Origin: Rhodothermus marinus
Lineage (GTDB): Bacteria > Bacteroidota > Rhodothermia > Rhodothermales > Rhodothermaceae
Direction of reading: 5' to 3'
DNA length: 64,000 bases
Assembly (NCBI RefSeq): GCF_009936275.1
Contig: NZ_AP019797.1
Location: 1,665,501 to 1,729,500 of the forward strand
Position 1 is the first letter of the stretch; every line of letters begins with the position of its first letter. Positions 47,121 through 61,706 of the stretch are shown here, piece by piece. Both the position numbers and the translations under genes were made by a program. Under the pieces are notes generated by a model. The model was not told the origin of the DNA. It did no database searches and was given only the letters and a program-made list of their open reading frames with translations.

Positions 47121-48373
<1,253 letters not shown>

Positions 48374-51275: not shown

Positions 51276-52619
51276 ATGTCCGAAAAGCTGCTGACGTTCC
51301 TCGGCGTCGGCGACCGGAATCGCCAGCTCGAAGCCCAGCTGCAAGACCGCGAATACCAAAGGGTCCGCTATTTTCTACCCGATGCACCCGACAAAGAGAT
51401 CGAAACCCCTTTTGTGGGCCAGGCCATTCTGGAGCTTCATCCCGATCGCTTCTCGCAGGTCGTGATTCTGGGCACGGTCGATTCGATGTGGGATACCCTG
51501 CTCATCCACTTCTTATCCGACACCCAGACGGAAGCGGAAATTGAGCTCTATACGGAACTGTTCGAAGCTATCGAGCACAAAAGAGAAGCCGAAGTTGAGA
51601 ACCTGCTACCTCGACTGACCCGGGTCCTCGAAAAACGCTGGCGTCCGGGACTTCAGTTGAAACTCATCCCGGTTGGCCGCACCCAGGAGGAACTCTGGCA
51701 GATTTTCGAAACCCTCACGGGCCTGAAGCCCTCGAACACCACCCTTTCGATCGACATCACGCACGGACTGCGGTATCAGCCGTTTTTTCTGCTGCTGGCG
51801 CTGCAGTATTTCCATCTCACCAGACCAAACGTCCGGCTCGGCTCGGTCTTCTACGGAGCCCTGGAACTGCACGACTACTATGAGGGCCGTGCCCCTCTTT
51901 TCGATCTGCGCCCGATGCTGGAGTTGATGCAGTGGAGCCTGGCCGCCCAGGCGTTCGTCCAGTATCAGGATCCAGAGCCACTGCTCGGATTGCTGCGGGA
52001 CCCCAGACAGGAACGCCTGCGCCATGAGCTGCGTCAGTTTGCCCGCCAGATCAACCTGAACCTGTTCAACGACTTCCGTAACCGTGCGCAGAAGCTGAGC
52101 CATCAACTACGCGGACTGTCCCAGCGAGAGGAAAACATGCCCGCCCCTTTCCGGCTGGTGGAGCCGTTTCTGGTGGACTTCTGCGAGACGTTTGCCGGTG
52201 CGCAAAGCGACTGGGAGGCGCTGCTCCGACTGGCCAGGCGTCATCTGAAGTACAGACGACCCGCGCTGGCCGTTCTGGCCGCCTACGAAGCGGTCGTCCA
52301 CCGTCTGTGCGAAATCTACGGAGTAAGGCCCGCCGCCAAAAATTCGCGAGGAAAGCGCTATAGCAGCGAGCTAATTCAGGCTTTGAAACGGGGCTCTATT
52401 ATCAGCAGGGCATTGCCCGAGCTCAAAGAACTGATCAAAGCCGTCAACGAGCTACAGGAGATCCGTAACAACACGGCCCATTTCAGGACGGACTCCGAGG
52501 GTCCCGATCCCGGCTATCGTCTTACCAAGATCAAAACGCTGCTGACCATTCTGGAAGAGAAGCTCGGCCACCCCACGCTGGAGCAATTGCCTCATCTGTA
52601 TCCCTTAGAGAGGCCGTAG
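51276..52619 (+). CDS. CARF-HEPN ribonuclease (Csx1/Csx2, TM1812 type), intact
   Basis: 447 residues. The CARF domain has LLTFLGVGDRNRQ, RVRYFLPD and LSIDITHGLRYQPFFLLLALQYF, with DITHGLR as the signature loop. The C-terminal helical HEPN domain contains EIRNNTAHFR with the RNase motif R-N-N-T-A-H (RX4H). Such proteins bind cyclic oligoadenylate made by Cas10 and cut RNA non-specifically, causing dormancy. It is the last gene of the plus-strand ancillary operon, and its 3' end overlaps the convergent cas6 by 15 bases. It resembles the interrupted gene at 46325 and may cover for its loss. Confidence 0.88.
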   Translation: MSEKLLTFLGVGDRNRQLEAQLQDREYQRVRYFLPDAPDKEIETPFVGQAILELHPDRFSQVVILGTVDSMWDTLLIHFLSDTQTEAEIELYTELFEAIEHKREAEVENLLPRLTRVLEKRWRPGLQLKLIPVGRTQEELWQIFETLTGLKPSNTTLSIDITHGLRYQPFFLLLALQYFHLTRPNVRLGSVFYGALELHDYYEGRAPLFDLRPMLELMQWSLAAQAFVQYQDPEPLLGLLRDPRQERLRHELRQFARQINLNLFNDFRNRAQKLSHQLRGLSQREENMPAPFRLVEPFLVDFCETFAGAQSDWEALLRLARRHLKYRRPALAVLAAYEAVVHRLCEIYGVRPAAKNSRGKRYSSELIQALKRGSIISRALPELKELIKAVNELQEIRNNTAHFRTDSEGPDPGYRLTKIKTLLTILEEKLGHPTLEQLPHLYPLERP

Positions 52620-53594
52620 CTCGTAGGCGCCCAACCCCATGACGGTGCTGTGGCCCACATGCAGTGCGGCCCCCAGGCGCAGCATGGGCCAGGTCTCGGG
52701 CGGTACGCCCTCGAAGACGATCTCGCCCACCAGCCCGCCCTGGCGCATGGTGGTGCGCTGACGGCCGGAGTAGCGCTGCAGGTCGTCCCGCCACTGCATG
52801 CGGTCTTCGCGCACGCGTACCGCCTCGGCTCTTCGCAGCAGATCGGCGTAGTCGAGCTGAAGCTCGGTCTCGGCATGAAAGGCGGCCAGGCTGGACAGGC
52901 GGCCGAGCACCGAGCGTAGCAGTATGCGATAGGTGAGCCGACGCACAAGCCGCCCCTGGGCCTTCAGGCGAAGCGGTACCGGAGCCCGGAGCAGTACGGT
53001 GCTGGCCGGGGATTCACCGGCCAGCAGTTCGGCGGCCGTCCATTCGGGCACATCAGCCAGCACCTGCCGCGCTCCGGCATCGTACACCTGCTGCAGCGAA
53101 CCGTCGGGCCGCAGCGCCTGCGCAGCAACCAGCCGAAAGCGACCGCCTCCGTCGCGCCGCCCGCGTCCCAGACCGCTTTCCTCCAGACGCACCAGTGCCA
53201 GCGTCAGATAGGGCAGGTACATCCGGGCGCGCCCCACCAGCAGCAGCTCTACCGTCAGACGCTCGCCCGGAGCAAACCGTCGCTCCTCCAGCCCGGGGCG
53301 CCGGACGACGTAGGGCCGGGGGACATCCTGCAATCCACGAAGGAAACGGCCATCGGGAGGCGGCGGCGTCTCGAAAAGGTAGCCATAGACGCAGGGCCAG
53401 CGAAACGGACAGTCCGTGCAGGTCGGAAGCCGCGTAATGCATACCATCCGCCGCAGTGCCGCTCCCAGCGCTCCACGGACCGTCGAGGCGGGGAGATCTC
53501 CCAGGTCGATGGGCGAGACCGCCTCCAGCTCGAAGCGCACCACCGACCAGCGCAGACGCGCAAGTCCGGACGACTGCAACAACGTTTCGTACAT
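52605..53594 (-). CDS. cas6: Cas6-type pre-crRNA endoribonuclease of the type III locus
   Basis: 329 residues from the ATG at 53594 (MYETLLQSSGLARLRWSVVRFELEA); the track upstream adds 18 unlikely residues. RAMP features: LPASTVRGALGAALRRMVC, then a cysteine set (CTDCPFRWPC) and YGYLFETPPPP as in COG5551 Cas6 proteins, and the C-terminal glycine-rich loop GHSTVMGLGAYEL. It should process the 37-nt type III repeats. It is last in a minus-strand operon after cas4-cas1, cas2 and a J-domain gene, and is unlike the Cas6 fragment at the start of the window. Confidence 0.88.
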   Translation of the reverse strand: MYETLLQSSGLARLRWSVVRFELEAVSPIDLGDLPASTVRGALGAALRRMVCITRLPTCTDCPFRWPCVYGYLFETPPPPDGRFLRGLQDVPRPYVVRRPGLEERRFAPGERLTVELLLVGRARMYLPYLTLALVRLEESGLGRGRRDGGGRFRLVAAQALRPDGSLQQVYDAGARQVLADVPEWTAAELLAGESPASTVLLRAPVPLRLKAQGRLVRRLTYRILLRSVLGRLSSLAAFHAETELQLDYADLLRRAEAVRVREDRMQWRDDLQRYSGRQRTTMRQGGLVGEIVFEGVPPETWPMLRLGAALHVGHSTVMGLGAYELRPL

Positions 53595-53655
53595 ATTCGG
53601 TGTGGCATACCGGCAGAGAAGGTAGCCACCCGAAGCGCTCTCCCGCAAGCACCAC

Positions 53656-54531
53656 TCAGAAATTCAGCCGGGCCCGGAAGTACTCATAGGCTTCGTTCAG
53701 TTCGCGCGCCCGCTCCTCGGCCTGTCTGCGCTCGGCCGCCGAGGCCTGCTGCATGCGGTCCGGATGACAGGTTTTGATCAGCCTCCGGTAGTTGCGGCGC
53801 ACCTTCTCGGGCGTGTAGGGGGCCTCGAGCTCCAGCACGGCGGCATAATGGCGTTCCAGTGCACGATCCAGATCGGCCCCGGCCTCCGAAGCCCCATAGC
53901 GTTCTTCTCTGAGGATCTCCTCGATCTCCTGCTCCAGTGCCTCACGACCTGTCCGGAGTTTCTGGTAAAGATTCCAGTGTTGCAAACCGTAAAGTAGCAG
54001 GCATATAAAAAGAATCGTATCGAAATCATGAGTACGTTCATCGCCAACCTCCGCCTCGAGCTGCGAGACGATCCGATGCAGGTTCTTCTCCTGCGTCGGA
54101 GCAATCAGCACCGGGAGCAGCTCATCGAAACGCTCGAAGGATTCTTTCGCGATGAAGTAAACGACGAGCAGGTCACGCAGAATGCGTGCGGGATTCTCTG
54201 CCGTGATTACGATTTCGGCGAAGTGCTTGATCATGAGCAGGCGCAGATTCAATGCCTCCCATAGCAGTGCTCCAGCTTCTTCGGGCTTCATGGTTCCACC
54301 TCCGAAGAAGCGGGCCGCCTTGTAGGCCAGTGGTCCAATAATCAGGTCCTCCAGCCCCAGGCCACCTGTAAGCAGAGAAAGCCCTATCCCCAGAATGGTC
54401 CCGTTGCGACGTGCCCGGCGATCGGCCTCGAGTTCCCGAAGCGCCAGGTCCACACTGTCTCCCAGCAGCAGAAACGCCGCTTCGTAGTTGCCTCGTTCGA
54501 TCAACGTACTAACTCGTTCAAACTGATCCAT
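53656..54531 (-). CDS. Membrane-associated J-domain (DnaJ-like) protein
   Basis: 291 residues from the ATG at 54531 (MDQFERVSTLIERGNYEAAF). The C-terminal 70 residues are a J domain with the HPD motif (YRRLIKTCHPDRMQQAS), which stimulates Hsp70. Two hydrophobic stretches (TILGIGLSLLTGGLGLEDLIIGP and TILFICLLLYGLQHW) suggest membrane association, with an alpha-helical N-terminal region. It starts 14 bases after cas2 and precedes cas6 by 61 bases in the same direction, so it is embedded in the adaptation operon. A J-domain protein is not a known Cas component; the link may be functional or accidental. Confidence 0.82.
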   Translation of the reverse strand: MDQFERVSTLIERGNYEAAFLLLGDSVDLALRELEADRRARRNGTILGIGLSLLTGGLGLEDLIIGPLAYKAARFFGGGTMKPEEAGALLWEALNLRLLMIKHFAEIVITAENPARILRDLLVVYFIAKESFERFDELLPVLIAPTQEKNLHRIVSQLEAEVGDERTHDFDTILFICLLLYGLQHWNLYQKLRTGREALEQEIEEILREERYGASEAGADLDRALERHYAAVLELEAPYTPEKVRRNYRRLIKTCHPDRMQQASAAERRQAEERARELNEAYEYFRARLNF

Positions 54532-54545
54532 GGTACTCCCGAGGT

Positions 54546-54827
54546 TCAGACGATCCAGTGGTTCTGTCTGAGGTCCACGCCTTTCCCCTGGCCGATCTGC
54601 TCGAGGGCTTCGATACAACCCTGACAGAGACGCAGAAAGAACAGGCGGTCTTCTTCAAGATCGACGATGCGCAGCAGCCCGCGACGGAGCTGCCGTATCG
54701 CTTCGGCCTCAAGCCGACACAGAAACACACTGTACTGCAACCGCTGCCCGTAGTCTTCAAGCAGCCGCGCCACCCGCTGCAGGCGGCGGGGGTCGGCAAT
54801 GTCGTATCCGATCAGCCAGAATGCCAT
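54546..54827 (-). CDS. cas2: Cas2 of the type III adaptation operon
   Basis: 93 residues. MAFWLIGYDIADPRRLQRVARLLEDYGQRLQYSVFLCRL is a textbook Cas2 start, with the DI-x-D-x-RR-LxxV pattern and SVF. Its ATG directly follows the stop of the cas4-cas1 fusion with no spacer base, so it is translationally coupled. It is not closely similar to the type I-B Cas2 at 8041, so the two adaptation modules are separate. Confidence 0.94.
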   Translation of the reverse strand: MAFWLIGYDIADPRRLQRVARLLEDYGQRLQYSVFLCRLEAEAIRQLRRGLLRIVDLEEDRLFFLRLCQGCIEALEQIGQGKGVDLRQNHWIV

Positions 54828-56405
54828 CTATGCAACAAACGGCGTGTATTCGGCGCCGGGCTCCTGGAGGGTACGCGCCAGCAATCGCGCCTGCGCCTCG
54901 AAGTGGCGCATCTGCGACATTTCAAGACCGAGCACCGGATGCCGACTTACCTGCTGCCGCCATTCCTGCCAGGCAGCCAGCACAACCGCACGGCCTTCTT
55001 CGTTCAGGTACACCCCACCACTACGCTCCTCGAAGTGGCGGGGACGCAATTTCCCGCGATTGAACAGGTGCAGCGTCAGCCGGTCGGCTATCGGGGCGCG
55101 AAACTCCTCCATCAGGTCGAGCGCCAGCGAGGGGCGTCCATAGGCCGGTGTGTGCAGATAGCCCACATAGGGATCGAGCCCGGCTACTGCACAGGCCGTT
55201 ACGAGATTGCCGAGCAGCAGGGCGTAGAGATAGCCCAGCGTGGCATTGACCGGATCGGTGGGGGGGCGCCGGTTGCGCCCGGGGAAAACCGGCCAGTCGA
55301 TCGGTTCGTGCGCTTCCGGCCGCAGCATTTCATTGAAAACCGAGAAATAGCGGCGGGTAGCGGCTCCCTCCAGTCCCCGCACGGCGTCCGGCGACTTCAG
55401 CTCGGACAGATGCTGCAGATCGCTTTCGATTGCTGCAGCGGTGGCCTCGAGCGTGCTGTTTCGATAGTCCTGCGCGTAGTGGCGAAGCAACCGGGCCATA
55501 TTCTGCAGTTTTCCGCGCACAAACTGCCGCGCCAGTGGCAGGGCGCGCTGCGGATCACGGGCTGCCTCGTACTGCGCCAACCGGAGGGCCACGTGCGGAT
55601 GGAACTCGGTCGCCAGTCGTCCCTCAAAGCGCCCTTCGGTCGAGAGATATACGATGTCCACGTTCTGGCGCAGCAGCAGCCGCAGGGCCTGCGAGGTGAT
55701 CTGCACGGGTCCGACGAGCACGACCTGATCCACCAGCAATGCGGGCAGTCGCAGCAATTCCCGGCGGGTGCCGTTGCGGCTGACGGTCACCACCAGCTGC
55801 CGCCCATCACGGCGCACGACGGCTCCGATTTCATCCACGTAGAGCGTGCGGGCCTGACGCACCGGAGGCAGAACGTTCAACTGGGCCGCAGTTTCGGCTG
55901 CACCAGAAGGGTTACAGACTTCAAGCCGTGGACAGGCCGGGCAACGCTGGTCGGCCCGTGGTGCAGGTAGCCTTCCTTCATGAATAACCGCCCGGATCTC
56001 CGCATCGAGGCGTTGCCATGCGGCCCGCAGGCGCTCGTCCAGGGTTACCACTTCCTGCCGGCCGGTAGGACCGTACTGCACGATGCCGCGGGCAACGGAC
56101 TGGCCTGTTTCGGCTTCGATCAGTCGGGCAAGCGCGGCCAGCATCAGATGCTCCGGCCGCTCGGCCGTGTCGCTTTCCGCTACATGCGCCAACCGGATCA
56201 CCGGCACAGGGCTTCCATGGCCGTCTCGGATGAACTGCACCGGTCCGCACCAGCCATCGGCCGCCATCCATGTGCCCTCGCCCGAAGAGAGGGCAACTGG
56301 TTCGCCCGGCCCCTCCACCCAGGCATAGTAGCCTCGCCGCAGGCAGTAGGCAAACTCATACACCCATGCCACCGGCCAACAGGGGCCTTCGTATGGTGCC
56401 TGCAT
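54828..56405 (-). CDS. cas1: Cas4-Cas1 fusion protein
   Basis: 525 residues. The N-terminal ~180 residues resemble Cas4: a cysteine in YEFAYCLRRGYYAWVEGP and the CPACPRLEVC triad near residue 165, expected iron-sulphur ligands. The RecB catalytic E-x-K after the conserved aspartate is not seen; the corresponding region reads PVPVIRLAHVAES, so the nuclease is probably dead. The rest is a full Cas1 with E346 (GLEGAATRRYF), H418 (GYLHTPAYGRPS) and D430 (LALDLMEEF). Cas4-Cas1 fusions are known from I-G/I-U and some other loci. It would serve the 37-nt repeat arrays, the closest being array 4. Confidence 0.92.
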   Translation of the reverse strand: MQAPYEGPCWPVAWVYEFAYCLRRGYYAWVEGPGEPVALSSGEGTWMAADGWCGPVQFIRDGHGSPVPVIRLAHVAESDTAERPEHLMLAALARLIEAETGQSVARGIVQYGPTGRQEVVTLDERLRAAWQRLDAEIRAVIHEGRLPAPRADQRCPACPRLEVCNPSGAAETAAQLNVLPPVRQARTLYVDEIGAVVRRDGRQLVVTVSRNGTRRELLRLPALLVDQVVLVGPVQITSQALRLLLRQNVDIVYLSTEGRFEGRLATEFHPHVALRLAQYEAARDPQRALPLARQFVRGKLQNMARLLRHYAQDYRNSTLEATAAAIESDLQHLSELKSPDAVRGLEGAATRRYFSVFNEMLRPEAHEPIDWPVFPGRNRRPPTDPVNATLGYLYALLLGNLVTACAVAGLDPYVGYLHTPAYGRPSLALDLMEEFRAPIADRLTLHLFNRGKLRPRHFEERSGGVYLNEEGRAVVLAAWQEWRQQVSRHPVLGLEMSQMRHFEAQARLLARTLQEPGAEYTPFVA

Positions 56406-56512: not shown

Positions 56513-57238
56513 TTAGCCATACAGGTCGCAAGAGAGACGCGGATGCGGAGGCTCAAACCAGCCGGAGATCATCAGCCAGCACATCTCTGTTTCTCGATGC
56601 CATCTCGAAAGGGATACGCGAATAAGCGAACCTTCCTTTATGACAGGTGGTGTTTTTGAAAAGACTCCTACGTAGGGTATATAGTAAAGTCTATTATTAT
56701 CTGCTTTATACCGATAGCATAGTTTATTGTTAGAATCATAGCTTTTATAAAGATTCTTATCGGGCAACCAAAATCCAGTGCTGCATTTCGAAACGTTATT
56801 TTTATCTATATATCCCTTTCCATTCTTATTAAACTGAATCTTTCCGTCAAATAAGTTGTTAGGATCGCCGCGCCACAAAATTGGCAATCTCGATTTTTGA
56901 AGCATATAGAGGATTCTGTCATACATTTCACTTACTCTGATCTTTTTCAAAAGTATGGCATCTTCAACAATCACGTCTTCTACATGAGGAGGAATTTTTT
57001 GTTCAAGCTCTCTTACAGTGAGCTCCCAGACATCTCCAATCCGATAGGGCGCAGACGTATCCCAGAAACCTTTAAACCCTCGCCTGATTATCCTTCCTCT
57101 ATAAAGATCACGAGGGTTCATCAGGCGAACACTATAACATTGGGCCTCATTTTCCTCCCAAGCCAGTCCACCTATACATCTCATCTGATCATTGTTGGTA
57201 CGAGTACGAGCAACAATCAGTACTTTTATTTTATTCAT
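56513..57238 (-). CDS. Dual-OB-domain-like protein of a DUF488 cassette
   Basis: 241 residues (MNKIKVLIVARTRTNNDQMRCIGGLAWEENEAQCYSVRLMNP). The N-terminal pattern of a strand, then CIGG and (V)RL, resembles proteins annotated as dual OB-containing domain proteins; the rest is beta-rich with many lysines, asparagines and tyrosines. Its ATG overlaps the preceding DUF488 stop (ATGA). Together with two DUF488 genes it forms a three-gene minus-strand cassette, far more AT-rich than its surroundings, between the cas4-cas1 operon and array 4. The function is unknown; a nucleic-acid-linked defence role is inferred only from fold and location. Confidence 0.62.
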   Translation of the reverse strand: MNKIKVLIVARTRTNNDQMRCIGGLAWEENEAQCYSVRLMNPRDLYRGRIIRRGFKGFWDTSAPYRIGDVWELTVRELEQKIPPHVEDVIVEDAILLKKIRVSEMYDRILYMLQKSRLPILWRGDPNNLFDGKIQFNKNGKGYIDKNNVSKCSTGFWLPDKNLYKSYDSNNKLCYRYKADNNRLYYIPYVGVFSKTPPVIKEGSLIRVSLSRWHRETEMCWLMISGWFEPPHPRLSCDLYG

Positions 57239-57717
57239 AGATGAACTACGGGTATATTTTCCTTTTGTTCAATCCAGTCGGTCAAGATAGATCTATGACA
57301 GGCGCGAGGATCTTTCTCCACACAGAAAAACACGATGCGTTTTGAATCTACTGGAAGTTTTGCAAAGATATCAACAGGAGATATTTTAGATAGACAAGCC
57401 TGTTTATATGCTTCAATAAATGCATGGGAAAGCAGGGTACGCTGGCGCTTGAGAATGGATTTTTTTTGATCGACTGCTCTCTGGATGGCCCTTACTTCTC
57501 TGGGAGGTGCCAATTCTTTCAGGTAAACATACCTGATACCCAGTTTGTCCAACTTTTGACACAGATAATTTTTATTTACGAATTTATATTCACGACCCCT
57601 TACTCCTCTGCGTTGACGAATATCACAGAAGGTATCGATTTTATTTTGCTGCAAAGTGTCAAAAAAACTATCCTCGTCTCTCCCATAGACACCAATTGTA
57701 AAGATTTGCTCAATCAT
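57235..57717 (-). CDS. DUF488 family protein (first copy)
   Basis: 160 residues. FTIGVYGRDEDSFFDTLQQNKIDTFCDIRQRRGVRG is the DUF488 start (TIG.y......f...L....i....DiR), and CVEKDPRACHRSILTDWI the conserved C-x(7)-CHR end. DUF488 proteins have an alpha/beta fold and no settled activity. It lies 2 bases after the second copy and overlaps the dual-OB gene. AT-rich with codon use unlike the adjacent cas genes, so recently acquired. Confidence 0.85.
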   Translation of the reverse strand: MIEQIFTIGVYGRDEDSFFDTLQQNKIDTFCDIRQRRGVRGREYKFVNKNYLCQKLDKLGIRYVYLKELAPPREVRAIQRAVDQKKSILKRQRTLLSHAFIEAYKQACLSKISPVDIFAKLPVDSKRIVFFCVEKDPRACHRSILTDWIEQKENIPVVHL

Positions 57718-57719
57718 TT

Positions 57720-58316
57720 TCAGGCATCTTTTTTAATTTTCTTTCCGGAAACGGCAATTTTGCTTTCGAAGTCAAAACCAAAAAGATTTAACTGACCGCT
57801 GACAATTTTCAAAATAACTTTGTCCTGTTCGATAACTTTATATTCACCATTTTTATCTTTGTAAATATGAATAATACGTATATCGTTGTCACTTCTGGTC
57901 TCATATATATATTGTCCAACGAGCTTACTTCGATGACATTTATCAGGATACTGACAGGCACACATTAGAGCAATTCGCTGTGGCTGATAGTATCTCCACA
58001 ACGAAAGTAACTTCCGAATTCCCTCTTTGAAAAAATCTTTTTCTTTTATTACAGAAAATATCGGTTTATCGTTTTCGAGGCAGCTTTCGTCTGTAGGTTT
58101 ACCCCCAAGAGTATCCCCCATGTACTCATATGCAATTCCATTTTTTTCTAAATGATTCTTCAGCGTTCCTATAGAAAAGTCGGGATTGAATTTTGAATAA
58201 GGATTCGAGCGTATGTCCACAATGCATTTAATTTCATACTGTTTGAGCACATTGATAAACTCCTCTATTGAGGAAGTGCCATATCCCACTGTGAAAAGCG
58301 GCTGCACCTCATTCAT
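57720..58316 (-). CDS. DUF488 family protein (second copy)
   Basis: 198 residues from the ATG at 58316, which has GGAG five bases upstream; a start at 58355 is less likely. FTVGYGTSSIEEFINVLKQYEIKCIVDIRSNPYSKFNPDFS and CACQYPDKCHRSKLVGQYI are the two diagnostic DUF488 blocks. A C-terminal extension of about 60 residues (IRIIHIYKDKNGEYKVIEQDK onward) is absent from the first copy. It is the first gene of the cassette, whose promoter would lie in 58317-58442 beside the distal end of array 4. Confidence 0.85.
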   Translation of the reverse strand: MNEVQPLFTVGYGTSSIEEFINVLKQYEIKCIVDIRSNPYSKFNPDFSIGTLKNHLEKNGIAYEYMGDTLGGKPTDESCLENDKPIFSVIKEKDFFKEGIRKLLSLWRYYQPQRIALMCACQYPDKCHRSKLVGQYIYETRSDNDIRIIHIYKDKNGEYKVIEQDKVILKIVSGQLNLFGFDFESKIAVSGKKIKKDA

Positions 58317-58442: not shown

Positions 58443-60474
58443 AACGCTATCTCCTTTTCATCAGGTCAAGTCTTCAGGGTTGGCTGACATGGGCCCGCTC
58501 ATGCGCAGGCGGGCCACGCAGGTCGTAATCCCCTTTTCATCGGGTCAGGTTTTCAGACCACCGCGTAGCCCAGGATATCCTGGGTTACACGAACCGCGCG
58601 AACAGGTCGTAATCCCCTTTTCATCGGGTCAGGTTTTCAGACTAGAGGCACTGGCCGAACTCTCGGAGGCTGCCGAGATTCTGGAACGCGTCGTAATCCC
58701 CTTTTCATCGGGTCAGGTTTTCAGACCACGTCATGGGTGAGATGACCTTCACCTGCGCGCTGGTCCGGTTACTACAGCGTCGTAATCCCCTTTTCATCGG
58801 GTCAGGTTTTCAGACCGAATGGTATGTGCCGGGCTTGCCATGATCTATCTTGTCGTAATCCCCTTTTCATCGGGTCAGGTTTTCAGACTCAAACAAGCCC
58901 TTAAGGCAAGGGGCTTGCTAATCGAATAAAACGGCTACGGCCAACCGTCGTAATCCCCTTTTCATCGGGTCAGGTTTTCAGACGCCGACAGGTCCGAACC
59001 CAAGCTCGGCTTGGACGATAGTCGTAATCCCCTTTTCATCGGGTCAGGTTTTCAGACCGATCCCAGTCGATTTCCCCATTCTCTCCGGTACAATACTGTC
59101 GTAATCCCCTTTTCATCGGGTCAGGTTTTCAGACCCAATAACCAACCGCGCATGGAGAAATGGTACGCTACTCTCGTCGTAATCCCCTTTTCATCGGGTC
59201 AGGTTTTCAGACCACGTCATGGGTGAGATGACCTTCACCTGCGCGCTGGTCCGGTTACTACAGCGTCGTAATCCCCTTTTCATCGGGTCAGGTTTTCAGA
59301 CCGTCTCGGCTTGAGAGTGGCGGAGCGCCCGCGTCGATCATGGCGACGGTGTGGGGTCGTAATCCCCTTTTCATCGGGTCAGGTTTTCAGACGGTGGAGG
59401 TGTCGCCCGTGCGCACGGATGTGTACGTGAGTCGTAATCCCCTTTTCATCGGGTCAGGTTTTCAGACTTGGCGGACACGGTATATTCTTCGGAGCGATGG
59501 CTGGTCGTAATCCCCTTTTCATCGGGTCAGGTTTTCAGACGCAGCCCCATGTGTACCTGCTGAGCAAGCGCTCAGCAGGTCTCACCATGTCGTAATCCCC
59601 TTTTCATCGGGTCAGGTTTTCAGACCCCAGTTAGCCAAGTTAGAAAAGATAGCCCAGGAAAGGGGCGTCGTAATCCCCTTTTCATCGGGTCAGGTTTTCA
59701 GACGGCACAGGTGATCGGCAGCGTGGAGCGCATTAACCTGCGTCGTAATCCCCTTTTCATCGGGTCAGGTTTTCAGACTGCCTACATATTTCTGCACAAA
59801 AACATGCACGTCCGCGCGCAGTCGTAATCCCCTTTTCATCGGGTCAGGTTTTCAGACTTTCCGTGAATTGAATAAAAATAACACGAAGTTATTAAGTCGT
59901 AATCCCCTTTTCATCGGGTCAGGTTTTCAGACCGCCAATTTTTGCCTCCGTCTCGGTGAGCACCGTTTCTCCGTCGTAATCCCCTTTTCATCGGGTCAGG
60001 TTTTCAGACCCACAGGAAAGAAAGTCGCCTACTTCCATTTCATACAATTCAGTCGTAATCCCCTTTTCATCGGGTCAGGTTTTCAGACGTTCCTGTGCTG
60101 AAAGAGCGATGAAGACCGGACGTTGCTGCCGTGTCGTAATCCCCTTTTCATCGGGTCAGGTTTTCAGACGGTGGCGCCAGAAGGTGTACCTGCTAGACAA
60201 CGACGAACGGTCGTAATCCCCTTTTCATCGGGTCAGGTTTTCAGACCGGCCCGGCGAGGTAAGCCGGGCGGTGGCTGGCTATCTGGTCGTAATCCCCTTT
60301 TCATCGGGTCAGGTTTTCAGACCGCCAATTTTTGCCTCCGTCTCGGTGAGCACCGTTTCTCCGTCGTAATCCCCTTTTCATCGGGTCAGGTTTTCAGACT
60401 TCGGCAACGGCTTCGATCAGCTTGGGAAGCGTTTCGTGTCGTAATCCCCTTTTCATCGGGTCAGGTTTTCAGAC
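58443..60474 (-). CRISPR. Type III array 4: 25 intact repeats and a degenerate distal repeat
   Basis: 37-nt repeats of the AGGTTTTC variant, starting at 58443 (degenerate), 58522, 58606, 58690, 58779, 58852, 58947, 59021, 59098, 59176, 59265, 59356, 59431, 59504, 59589, 59667, 59742, 59821, 59896, 59973, 60052, 60133, 60210, 60286, 60363, 60438. The decayed copy is at the left and the leader at the right, so it is transcribed leftward. Two spacers occur twice: 58727-58778 = 59213-59264, and 59933-59972 = 60323-60362. The first duplicated spacer and that at 60010-60051 encode homologues of the protein at 48759-49151. Nearly every spacer has an open frame on the plus strand, for example QLAKLEKIAQERG (59626) and AYIFLHKNMHVRA (59779). 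Confidence 0.97.
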
Positions 60475-60692: not shown

Positions 60693-61067
60693 TCAGTTGC
60701 AGAGCTGCTGGACCTGCGCGCAGATGCGCTCACGCCGCCGATTCATAAACTCCCGGGCTTCTTCGTAACGAATCCGCATTCGCCCCACTAACATGCGAGG
60801 CACCTTCCATGAAATCGAGCCGTAAGGCTCGCGCCCGTTCAGATGCGAGCGCGCCCAGCTTTTGATCGTTTCGCAGATACGCTCCACCTCGTCATAGATG
60901 CGCTCGGCTTCCACCTCGATCAGACAGCTCACTTCCAGATCGAACGCCCCGGGCCAGGCATTCACCTCCGCCTCCGGAAGGCGCTGTCGGAGCCCTTCCA
61001 GGTCTTTCTCAAGATCGTTTTCGCCCTCAATGTAAAGCAGGAATTCAAGCAGTACCGGACAGGCCAT
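60693..61067 (-). CDS. Hypothetical protein
   Basis: 124 residues (MACPVLLEFLLYIEGENDLEKDLEGLRQRLPEAEVNAWPG), predicted strand-helix-strand-helix with a basic, arginine-rich C-terminus (RMRIRYEEAREFMNRRRERI). No family recognised. It reads away from leader 4 and is followed by nothing on this strand until the array. Its size and predicted layout resemble the small genes at 49264 and 49666, but I see no clear sequence similarity. Confidence 0.65.
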   Translation of the reverse strand: MACPVLLEFLLYIEGENDLEKDLEGLRQRLPEAEVNAWPGAFDLEVSCLIEVEAERIYDEVERICETIKSWARSHLNGREPYGSISWKVPRMLVGRMRIRYEEAREFMNRRRERICAQVQQLCN

Positions 61068-61127: not shown

Positions 61128-61448
61128 TCAGCGGCTTAACTCGGGCCAGCCCTCCAGGTCCGGCGAGAGTTCTTCACCAAACAGATCGACGCGGCCGGCC
61201 GCTACAGCCGCCGGTCCGTAGGAGACGGTCACTTCTTCTCCCGGAGCACCTGATCGTGCCAGCTCGCGACAGATCCGGAGCTGCAGTTTCTTCAGCACCT
61301 GATCCAGTTGGGGCTGCTCGAACGTCCAGATGAACGCAGGACCGGTTACCGGCCCATAGCCCATCTGGCTCAGCGCTCGAATCAGTGCCGGCATAAGCTC
61401 GGGGTTACTGCCCCGGTAATGCAGCATAAATCGGTACGAGGTCCGCAT
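61128..61448 (-). CDS. Hypothetical protein
   Basis: 106 residues from the ATG at 61448 (MRTSYRFMLHYRGSNPELMPALIRALSQMGYG); a TTG at 61487 with GGGGGAAG just before it is an alternative start. Small alpha/beta protein without recognisable motif. It is 60 bases upstream of the previous hypothetical gene on the same strand, so the two may form an operon. Confidence 0.6.
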   Translation of the reverse strand: MRTSYRFMLHYRGSNPELMPALIRALSQMGYGPVTGPAFIWTFEQPQLDQVLKKLQLRICRELARSGAPGEEVTVSYGPAAVAAGRVDLFGEELSPDLEGWPELSR

Positions 61449-61706
61449 ACGTGCAGATCGGCTGGTGCGTGGTTGGGTCGAGGACAATCTTCCCCCATCA
61501 CGGAGATCAACCGCACCGATCTATTTCATGAGGTTGTTTTTGCCCGGGGATGCTCGGCGAAGCGTACAGTGCAGAGAAGGCTGTGTGGAAAAGTGGGAAC
61601 GTGAGATCCGGTAATCGAACCGGCTGCCGATAAATCCCATGCTCGAGGCGGCTGGTCTGGGAAGGATAGCTCCTAACGGAACACGTTGCGCACGGGTTCC
61701 CGAACG
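61449..61706. other. Intergenic region
   Basis: About 260 bases. On the minus strand it contains a CCGGT-TCGATT-ACCGG hairpin (61593-61608 area) and short inverted repeats after the SSB-like stop. It looks superficially like a tRNA T-arm but no complete tRNA fold is found. It probably holds the end of the SSB-like operon and the promoter of the next gene. Confidence 0.4.

What the first reader, a model, noticed from the sequence alone, without database searches (positions are those of the whole stretch)
56513..58316. AT-rich cassette: dual-OB-like protein with two DUF488 proteins, between cas operon and array
Three overlapping or abutting genes (gap of 2 bases, ATGA overlap) have base composition clearly unlike the neighbouring cas genes, and the arrangement lies within defence DNA. 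The two DUF488 copies differ strongly and one has a C-terminal extension, so they are partners rather than a recent duplication. It looks like a transferred, self-contained functional unit of unknown activity.
Basis: partly seen in the sequence, partly recalled or inferred. Interest (0 to 1): 0.6.

Follow-up and report, generated by a model that had tools for sequence, protein, structure and literature searches.

The report
Clamp-docking defence trio beside CRISPR array
Three small genes wedged between a bacterium's CRISPR genes and its CRISPR array form a widespread, barely studied defence-linked unit; one of its proteins ends in a peptide that looks made to dock on the ring that holds the DNA-copying machine on DNA.

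Summary
Three AT-rich, coupled minus-strand genes (DUF488a 58316-57720, DUF488b 57717-57235, DuOB 57238-56513) lie between a CRISPR array and cas4-cas1/cas2 of a type III-A system. The trio is a conserved unit: 40 of 48 loci hold all three parts by HMM, 45 of 48 counting weaker or broken DuOB, in at least five phyla. It is a divergent branch of PADLOC's candidate system PDC-M45 (A = DuOB, B and C = two DUF488): a known but uncharacterised kind. It lies in type III CRISPR loci in two distant branches (Rhodothermus, Allochromatium), inside Hma operons, and near Wadjet/Mokosh, CBASS or R-M genes elsewhere; many copies have no known defence neighbour. What I did not find described: the tail of the first DUF488 carries a beta-sliding-clamp-binding motif. 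It is QLNLF here, as in UmuC; canonical motifs occur in 12 of 41 partners against 0.9 expected, and in 0 of 38 DUF488b. DuOB models well as a tandem OB fold (SSB/HIN/RPA-like); DUF488a has a phosphatase-like fold with conserved Cys and Arg. Best reading: a clamp-tethered, DNA-binding, paired phosphatase-fold enzyme acting on replicating invader DNA. Chemistry and anti-phage activity are inferred, not shown.

The parts
57720..58316 (-). DUF488a (PDC-M45B-like), 198 aa, phosphatase-like fold with C-terminal extension
   Evidence: Pfam DUF488 E 2e-18; PADLOC PDC-M45B E 1e-37; AF2 pLDDT 85.7, pTM 0.81; fold matches
57780..57794 (-). candidate beta-sliding-clamp-binding motif QLNLF, residues 175-179 of DUF488a, in its low-confidence tail
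   Evidence: read; pLDDT of the last three blocks 55, 50, 46; canonical motif in 12 of 41 partners against 0.89 expected; motif definition in PMC11139829
57930..57962 (-). conserved Cys119...Cys127-His-Arg129 of DUF488a (candidate active-site loop)
   Evidence: Cys-(x5-9)-CH[RG] in 41 of 41 a-type and 38 of 38 b-type proteins
57235..57717 (-). DUF488b, 160 aa, second DUF488 without tail
   Evidence: Pfam DUF488 E 3e-15 and DUF488-N3a E 9e-7; PDC-M19A E 1e-16, PDC-M45B 2e-13, PDC-M45C 3e-9
56513..57238 (-). DuOB, tandem OB-fold protein, 241 aa
   Evidence: Pfam DuOB E 2e-14; AF2 pLDDT 88.8, pTM 0.87; SSB/HIN/telomere-end/RPA matches
57235..57238 (-). ATGA overlap of DUF488b stop and DuOB start
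54828..56405 (-). cas4-cas1 fusion gene downstream, same strand (context)
   Evidence: Pfam Cas_Cas1 E 7e-94, Cas_Cas4 E 1e-5; NCBIfam cas4g_cas1g below its cut-off
52605..54827 (-). cas2, J-domain protein and cas6 genes (context)
   Evidence: homologues in the same order in R. marinus pRMAR01, annotated there; DnaJ domain E 3e-8
58443..60474 (+). CRISPR array next to the trio, with a degenerate repeat at the trio end

Best explanation
The trio is a divergent, horizontally acquired member of the DuOB plus paired-DUF488 group (PADLOC candidate PDC-M45), riding in a type III-A CRISPR locus. Proposed working: DUF488a and DUF488b form a heterodimer of phosphatase-fold (rhodanese-phosphatase-type) enzymes with conserved Cys and Arg. 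DuOB supplies nucleic-acid binding through its two OB folds. The disordered tail of DUF488a docks on the beta sliding clamp through QLNLF, so that the complex acts on DNA under replication, processing or modifying DNA ends or nascent strands of invading elements. Shown here: conserved gene unit, coupling, folds predicted with good confidence, conserved Cys/Arg, statistical enrichment of the clamp motif, defence neighbourhoods in several lineages. Inferred: complex formation, actual clamp binding, DNA-end chemistry, anti-invader outcome.
For: Conserved unit: 40 of 48 loci; same site in R. marinus; an a-b fusion in one chain with QLHLF in the linker. Clamp motif (pattern Q[LIVMA]x[LM][FLI] or the hexamer form, slightly wider than the published one): 12 of 41 tails against 0.89 expected in shuffled tails (maximum 5 in 5,000); 8 of 20 after 50% dereplication against 0.41 (maximum 5); 0 of 38 in DUF488b. 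It recurs at the extreme C-terminus of diverged partners (QLSLF, QIALF, QLKLDL). QLNLF is the UmuC clamp motif. DNA binding: DuOB model pLDDT 88.8 resembling SSB, HIN, telomere-end and RPA OB proteins; DuOB-HRDC fusion. Enzyme fold: DUF488a resembles PRL phosphatases (Z 8.3-9.1) and an RNA 5'-phosphatase (Z 7.8). Defence: trio between HmaB and HmaC in L115 and L114, beside JetC/JetD and MkoC in L106, CBASS 2-5 kb away in L058, between csx16 and csm6 in L063, BglII-like R-M in L020.
Against: No activity is measured anywhere. 20 of 41 tails miss the wider Gln pattern: 15 of them have only a [DT][LMF]F, one has QLSLI, one DIF, one DLW, and two (L099, L100) nothing. The DUF4326 partners that replace DUF488a on some plasmids lack the motif by eye. 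Tails are related by descent, so shuffling overstates independence. An SRKxY-like block follows LF in many tails and could mean an internal interface. Of 20 further neighbour proteins scanned with PADLOC, 17 gave no hit at E 1e-10, and some loci lie in ordinary surroundings by eye. In Foldseek DUF488a has no PDB hit under E 0.001; the first is the CARF protein Csa3; the best rows are cobalamin-pathway proteins (Z 10.2, 9.4), above the phosphatases. DuOB's matches have low TM-scores.
Confidence: 0.5

Rival explanations
1. Replication or repair accessory, not defence: the trio is a clamp- and DNA-bound end-processing factor that helps the host or its plasmids and prophages, and sits in defence islands only because both are mobile.
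For: Clamp motif, OB folds, HRDC fusion, SSB-like acidic tips on two DuOB; ordinary surroundings with a PolB-type 3'-5' exonuclease gene just upstream in L011 and L012; SSB genes nearby on the Moraxella and R. marinus plasmids.
Against: Sparse, patchy distribution (7 of 394, 4 of 297, 12 of 398, 12 of 295 genomes). Insertion inside Hma operons and in type III CRISPR loci is not typical of repair genes.
Confidence: 0.22
2. Dedicated type III CRISPR accessory: the trio helps cyclic-oligoadenylate signalling or spacer acquisition by cas4-cas1/cas2.
For: Position between array and cas4-cas1 in two Rhodothermus species and, with another gene order, between csx16 and csm6 in Allochromatium; Foldseek first hit of DUF488a is Csa3 bound to cA4 (E 2.3e-3).
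Against: Of 48 other loci (3-20 kb each) searched with 14 type III and adaptation proteins, only L004 and L063 match; 46 do not (other CRISPR types were not sought). The trio stands with Hma, Wadjet, CBASS and R-M elsewhere. No CARF domain is named in it.
Confidence: 0.12
3. Selfish or counter-defence passenger: a toxin-like or anti-defence cassette carried by plasmids and prophages for its own upkeep.
For: Found on plasmids, IMG/VR contigs and an E. coli prophage.
Against: No antitoxin-like small gene seen in the unit; conserved three-part layout; also on chromosomes; tblastn with two DuOB queries found nothing among 50,697 phage records, and DUF488a matched one.
Confidence: 0.08
4. The QxxLF tail is not a clamp motif but an interface inside the trio, binding DuOB or DUF488b. 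(This rivals one step only and can be true together with the others.)
For: LF plus the following SRKxY-like block is conserved in many tails, also where Gln is lost.
Against: The motif recurs at the very C-terminus of diverged partner proteins without the SRKxY block and matches the published clamp definition, in which Gln is not strictly needed.
Confidence: 0.25

Closest known systems
PADLOC candidate system PDC-M45 (A, B, C)
   Same: Same three-part make-up: A is DuOB, B and C are the two DUF488 (the Agrobacterium trio hits A 2e-88, B 4e-84, C 5e-73). Window DUF488a hits B at 1e-37.
   Different: The window's DuOB hits no PDC-M45A model at E up to 1 and its gene order is a-b-DuOB; Agrobacterium, Rhodovastum and Allochromatium have DuOB-a-b. 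PADLOC gives no function.
DuOB / DUF488-N3 / mSLOG-DUF4326 systems (Pfam PF22557, PF22751, PF22565; I recall Burroughs and Aravind 2023 as the source, not readable here)
   Same: DuOB family and paired DUF488-type subunits; plasmid variants with a DUF4326 protein in place of DUF488a, mSLOG-DUF4326 in the one scanned.
   Different: Window copy lies in a type III-A CRISPR locus and carries a QLNLF tail; whether the 2023 paper mentions either is unknown to me.
beta-clamp-binding proteins (UmuC, Pol II, Pol IV, Hda)
   Same: QLNLF is letter for letter the UmuC motif; a flexible tail location as in Pol II and Pol IV.
   Different: No polymerase or known replication domain; binding untested.
SSB / RPA / HIN OB-fold proteins
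   Same: DuOB model matches two-OB SSBs (E 8e-5) and HIN domains (E 4e-4, probability 0.99).
   Different: TM-scores are low (0.17-0.36), sequence identity about 9%, no SSB tip in the window copy (2 of 52 DuOB have one).
Rhodanese-phosphatase superfamily (PRL, RNA 5'-phosphatases)
   Same: Fold (Z 8.3-9.1 to PRL, 7.8 to baculovirus RNA 5'-phosphatase) and conserved Cys and Arg.
   Different: Spacing Cys119 to Arg129 is x9, not the x5 of the classical phosphatase loop (recalled); activity unknown.

Membership tests
PADLOC PDC-M45 | component B (DUF488 with tail) | tested here: met
   E 1.1e-37
PADLOC PDC-M45 | component A (DuOB) by PADLOC's own models | tested here: not met
   0 hits at E up to 1; same Pfam family DuOB at 2e-14; so a divergent relative, not a called member
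PADLOC PDC-M45 | component C (second DUF488) | tested here: inconclusive
   M45C E 3.3e-9 but better hits to PDC-M19A 1.3e-16 and M45B 2.3e-13
DuOB family (Pfam PF22557) | profile match over full length above cut-off | tested here: met
   54.5 bits against cut-off 27, residues 4-227 on 1-210 of 210
DUF488 family (Pfam PF04343) | profile match above cut-off | tested here: met
   67.6 and 57.2 bits against 22.2
beta-clamp-binding proteins | canonical Q-phi-x-[LM]-[FL] peptide in a flexible stretch | tested here: met
   QLNLF at residues 175-179, block pLDDT 55
beta-clamp-binding proteins | physical binding to the clamp pocket | not testable with these tools
Type III CRISPR ancillary proteins | CARF or SAVED ligand domain named by sequence profile | tested here: not met
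   no such Pfam, NCBIfam or PADLOC match in the three window proteins; by fold the question stays open, as Foldseek ranks the CARF protein Csa3 first for DUF488a
Type III CRISPR ancillary proteins | consistent linkage to type III cas genes | tested here: not met
   window plus 2 of 48 other loci; 46 of 48 without a match to 14 query proteins in 3-20 kb
Rhodanese-phosphatase superfamily | fold plus catalytic Cys and loop Arg | tested here: inconclusive
   phosphatase rows at Z 8-9 but cobalamin-pathway proteins rank higher and Foldseek is weak; Cys/CH[RG] in 41 of 41 and 38 of 38; spacing unusual, activity untested
Anti-phage defence system | measured protection against phage or plasmid | not testable with these tools
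   no experiment

The most novel reading that the evidence does not exclude
DuOB-DUF488 trios are a general replication-fork module of bacterial immunity: a paired phosphatase-fold enzyme delivered to DNA by the beta sliding clamp and a tandem-OB subunit, which attacks or marks nascent DNA ends of invaders and has been plugged into unrelated defence operons (type III CRISPR, Hma, Wadjet, CBASS, R-M). In Rhodothermus it works alongside CRISPR and may feed DNA ends to cas4-cas1/cas2 acquisition.
Probability: 0.3. Interest if true: 0.85.

Novelty: new variant of a known kind. Interest (0 to 1): 0.6.

Why it matters
PDC-M45-like trios are a catalogued but uncharacterised defence candidate. A clamp-binding tail would explain how the unit reaches DNA, would make its target (replicating DNA) directly testable with one peptide and one mutant, and would tie an enzyme family of unknown chemistry (DUF488) to the replication fork. 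It also shows a branch that a current defence finder misses, because the PADLOC DuOB models do not see the window's copy.

Tried and rejected
Recent duplication of DUF488: rejected (25% identity, distinct HMM classes across loci). Housekeeping YeaO-like DUF488: the genome's third copy (C1:2832073) matches the DUF488-N3i model and lies elsewhere. Solved-structure sequence search gave nothing meaningful (kinase and hnRNP matches that I take as chance; none for DuOB). The Pfam DuOB model through the genome search missed even the window's own copy (0 of 1 and 0 of 7), so those zeros mean nothing; a protein query and alignments were used instead. The G195 hit (E 6e-4 inside a 1,053-aa frame) was dropped as chance. 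SSB-like acidic tips were first taken as a possible general feature of DuOB; a count showed 2 of 52, both from one bacterial family, so the idea was dropped for the window. A model of the natural a-b fusion was given up because the b rows aligned to the a half. PADLOC neighbour scans were on proteins I chose (10, of which 9 had hits at E 1e-5, one of them only generic ATPase-type; 10; 10; 2), without a control set: examples, not an enrichment test. Standalone DUF488 as control for the tail: 0 of 9 with the motif, but two of the nine (L141, L148) proved to be trio members, leaving 7. Promoter scan of the cassette: 10 sites against 4.9 expected, no terminator; not used. DuOB searches of viral contigs with the window's or the Agrobacterium protein alone found nothing; an alignment found two.
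Full report
Observation. The three genes are present as described. On the minus strand, DUF488a (58316-57720), DUF488b (57717-57235) and DuOB (57238-56513) follow each other with a 2-base gap and an ATGA overlap. Their G+C (0.36-0.41) is far below that of the cas genes beside them (0.58-0.68). Downstream on the same strand come a cas4-cas1 fusion, cas2, a J-domain gene and cas6; upstream lies a CRISPR array. The csm genes at 34-40 kb make the system type III-A.

Same place in a second species. R. marinus DSM 4252 plasmid pRMAR01 has the trio at the same spot: two repeats of an array, DUF488a, DUF488b, DuOB, cas1, cas2, J, cas6. Protein identity is 70, 81 and 68%, much like that of cas1, cas2 and J (74, 84, 77%). 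Synonymous sites are saturated in two trio genes (pS 0.81; 0.66 in DUF488b), less so in cas1, cas2 and J (0.54-0.60), and trio G+C is nearer the host in R. marinus (0.44-0.46). I read this as foreign DNA acquired before the two copies parted, now ameliorating, under purifying selection on protein (dN/dS 0.08 for DUF488b; not calculable for the other two); separate acquisition is not excluded.

A conserved unit elsewhere. Protein and profile searches found DuOB in 6 of 293 relatives (one dropped as chance); in 7 of 394 genomes of the window's phylum with a window-type profile, five of them already seen; in 4 of 297, 12 of 398 and 12 of 295 genomes of the phyla of an Acidobacteria, a Bacillota and a Nitrospirales MAG; in 6 loci of the one genome-contig scan, one of them apparently the contig already held as G032; and in 1 and 19 plasmid records with two queries. 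In 48 loci read with local HMMs, 40 have DuOB, a b-type DUF488 and an a-type partner together. Of the 40, L064-L066 have DUF4326 as the partner; L099 and L104 have a DUF488 split in two frames, L105 and L120 a truncated DuOB, and L111 a DuOB cut by the contig end. Five more (L108, L119, L121, L122, L154) have both partners and a DuOB that is broken or matched only in other calls. The last three are L013 and L110, near a contig end, and L152, with no b gene. The loci were picked by DuOB (three, L152, L154 and L156, by DUF488a), so this tests partners, not DuOB itself. Three more trios turned up in a DUF488 control survey (L141, L143, L148) and one in E. coli. An IMG/VR contig (L154) fuses a and b in one 377-aa chain, which is direct support for partnership.

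Relation to known candidates. PADLOC models identify the Agrobacterium trio as PDC-M45A, B and C with E 2e-88, 4e-84 and 5e-73. The window's DUF488a is B (1e-37), but its DuOB hits no A model, although Pfam DuOB matches at 2e-14. A profile comparison of the two DuOB branches gives E 1.3e-4 at 54% probability. The window thus belongs to a branch whose DuOB PADLOC does not see. Pfam names (DuOB, DUF488-N3a, mSLOG) suggest that the group has been described; I recall a 2023 paper by Burroughs and Aravind on the rhodanese-phosphatase superfamily but could not read it. In the held library no paper has both 'DUF488' and 'dual OB'; 25 papers mention DUF488 and 5 of them CRISPR (listings only).

Defence neighbourhoods. 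Type III CRISPR: window, R. marinus, and independently Allochromatium tepidum, where a PcfJ gene and the trio (order DuOB-a-b) stand between csx16 and csm6 with cas1 nearby. The other 46 of 48 loci searched with 14 type III and adaptation proteins gave no match, so CRISPR linkage is the exception. Hma: in L115 the frames run HmaA, a 181-aa frame, HmaB, DuOB, a, b, HmaC (HmaA 1,711 bits, HmaB 1,540, HmaC 1,139); 6 bases part HmaB from DuOB, and the HmaC frame opens 11 bases after b, though the profile matches it only from residue 168, so its true start may be later. L114 has HmaB and HmaC around the trio (483 and 367 bits). L106 has JetC and JetD just upstream and MkoC 1.6 kb downstream. Agrobacterium pAt1D1108a has CBASS genes 2-5 kb away. 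L020 has a BglII-like enzyme, an MT-A70 methylase and a IIG enzyme just upstream. In G032 DUF488a ends one contig (L055) and DuOB lies near the end of another (L013), with what looks by eye like an HsdR C-terminal end beside it. Against this: 17 of 20 neighbour proteins had no PADLOC hit, and L011, L012 and L018 show mostly ordinary genes by eye. The proteins were chosen by me and there is no control set.

The tail. In 17 aligned DUF488a from both branches the C-terminal extension has a nearly invariant aromatic position after a Leu-like residue (F179 of the window). The review PMC11139829 (passages) defines clamp-binding motifs as Q-phi-x-[L/M]-[F/L] and a hexamer form, says that Gln helps but is not necessary and that the LF pair can bind alone, and lists QLNLF for Pol V; PMC3716654 (abstract and passages) gives UmuC 357-QLNLF-361. 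The window and R. marinus tails read QLNLF. Canonical motifs (my pattern also allowed Ile last and Ala or Met second) are in 12 of 41 a-type partners against 0.89 in shuffled tails (maximum 5 in 5,000 shuffles); after dereplication at 50% identity 8 of 20 against 0.41 (maximum 5); with a looser pattern 21 of 41 against 3.3 (maximum 11) and 11 of 20 against 1.6 (maximum 7). In the last 60 residues of DUF488b it is 0 of 38 (looser 4 of 38). Of the 20 tails without the looser pattern, 15 keep a [DT][LMF]F; L101 has QLSLI, L113 DIF, L020 DLW; L099 and L100 have nothing. Not in the 41: the viral partners L152 (ELDLF), L156 (QYSMF) and L155 (DFF), found later, and L141, L143 and L148 (GDMF). A diverged class of partners (X488; DUF488-N3a by Pfam for the three scanned) ends in QGRLF, TTLF, QLKLDL, QLTLFG, QIALF or QPSLF: the motif is kept in five of six though the rest differs. 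The L154 fusion has QLHLF in its linker. The DUF4326 partners (L064-L066) lack it by eye. AlphaFold gives the window's tail block pLDDT of 55, 50 and 46, against 79-98 for the rest. Caveats: shared descent inflates the statistics, and the SRKxY-like block after LF could point to another role.

Folds. DuOB models with pLDDT 88.8 and pTM 0.87. Foldseek's best PDB hits are two-OB SSBs, HIN domains, telomere-end protein and RPA, with low TM-scores. VIA-align covers mainly residues 1-118 (RecO, RPA, SSB among others, also tRNA synthetase OB domains; best Z 7.5, in the range where only a common arrangement may be meant). In viral models baculovirus LEF-3, a single-strand binding protein (role recalled), leads. 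DUF488a: no Foldseek hit under E 0.001, the CARF protein Csa3 first (E 2e-3) followed by PRL phosphatases; VIA-align ranks cobalamin-pathway proteins at Z 10.2 and 9.4, PRL at 8.3-9.1 and the baculovirus RNA 5'-phosphatase at 7.8. Cys-(x5-9)-CH[RG] is in 41 of 41 a-type and 38 of 38 b-type proteins, so both members look active; this is inference.

How it most likely works. DuOB binds DNA, the a-b pair is the enzyme, and the tail of a brings the set to the sliding clamp, hence to replicating DNA. What is done there (removal or transfer of phosphate or other groups at DNA ends) is inferred from the fold and from what I recall of the superfamily. Why it sits in a CRISPR locus may be no more than defence-gene clustering; a link to cas4-cas1 acquisition is possible and untested.

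Variants. On three Enterobacteriaceae and Moraxellaceae plasmids read and in an E. coli prophage by icd the set is DuOB-DUF488b-DUF4326, with mSLOG on the one DUF4326 protein scanned; by DNA similarity 3 of 5,426 E. coli genomes show a relative, none covering 80% of the query.

Verdict. Real, conserved, defence-associated, already catalogued as a candidate, not characterised as far as I could see. The window copy is a divergent branch in an unusual place, and the clamp motif gives a concrete, cheap test of mechanism.

Noticed in passing
window 53656-54534: A J-domain (DnaJ) protein gene sits between cas2 and cas6, conserved in R. marinus pRMAR01.
   Followed up: no
window from 33338 and 58443-60474: Another array with the same repeat (one mismatch) lies about 25 kb away; 42 repeat matches in the window in all.
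   Followed up: no
window about 58728-58780 and 59212-59265: The same spacer (cacgtcatgggtgagatgacc...) appears twice in the array next to the trio.
   Followed up: no
window 60693-61067 and 61128-61487: Two small genes with no Pfam match beyond the array are conserved in order in R. marinus; the first has pS 0.29, far lower than the trio.
   Followed up: partly
window 47224-48372: 382-aa frame with a C-terminal zinc-ribbon that looks TnpB-like by eye.
   Followed up: no
L053:9648-10349 and L054:9665-10324: DuOB proteins ending in DDDDDDLPF and EDDDLPF, like the SSB C-terminal tip; 2 of 52 DuOB (DDDIPF as SSB tip in an abstract listed).
   Followed up: yes
L119:757-1968: DuOB fused to an HRDC domain (E 3e-20).
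   Followed up: partly
window 56513-57238: Cys21, Arg38 and Glu87 of DuOB are invariant in 19 aligned DuOB of both branches, with Ser209 and Leu210; a binding pocket or activity in the first OB fold is possible.
   Followed up: no
L017:7812-7960: Remnant of a second DUF488a tail (QQDLFG...SRKQY) and of a DUF488b between DUF488b and DuOB: a decayed tandem copy.
   Followed up: no
L063:2990-4876: A PcfJ-domain gene lies between csx16 and DuOB in the Allochromatium CRISPR locus.
   Followed up: no
L054:6579-6944: Frame that looks like the start of a cas9 gene, cut short, about 1.7 kb before the trio (by eye).
   Followed up: no
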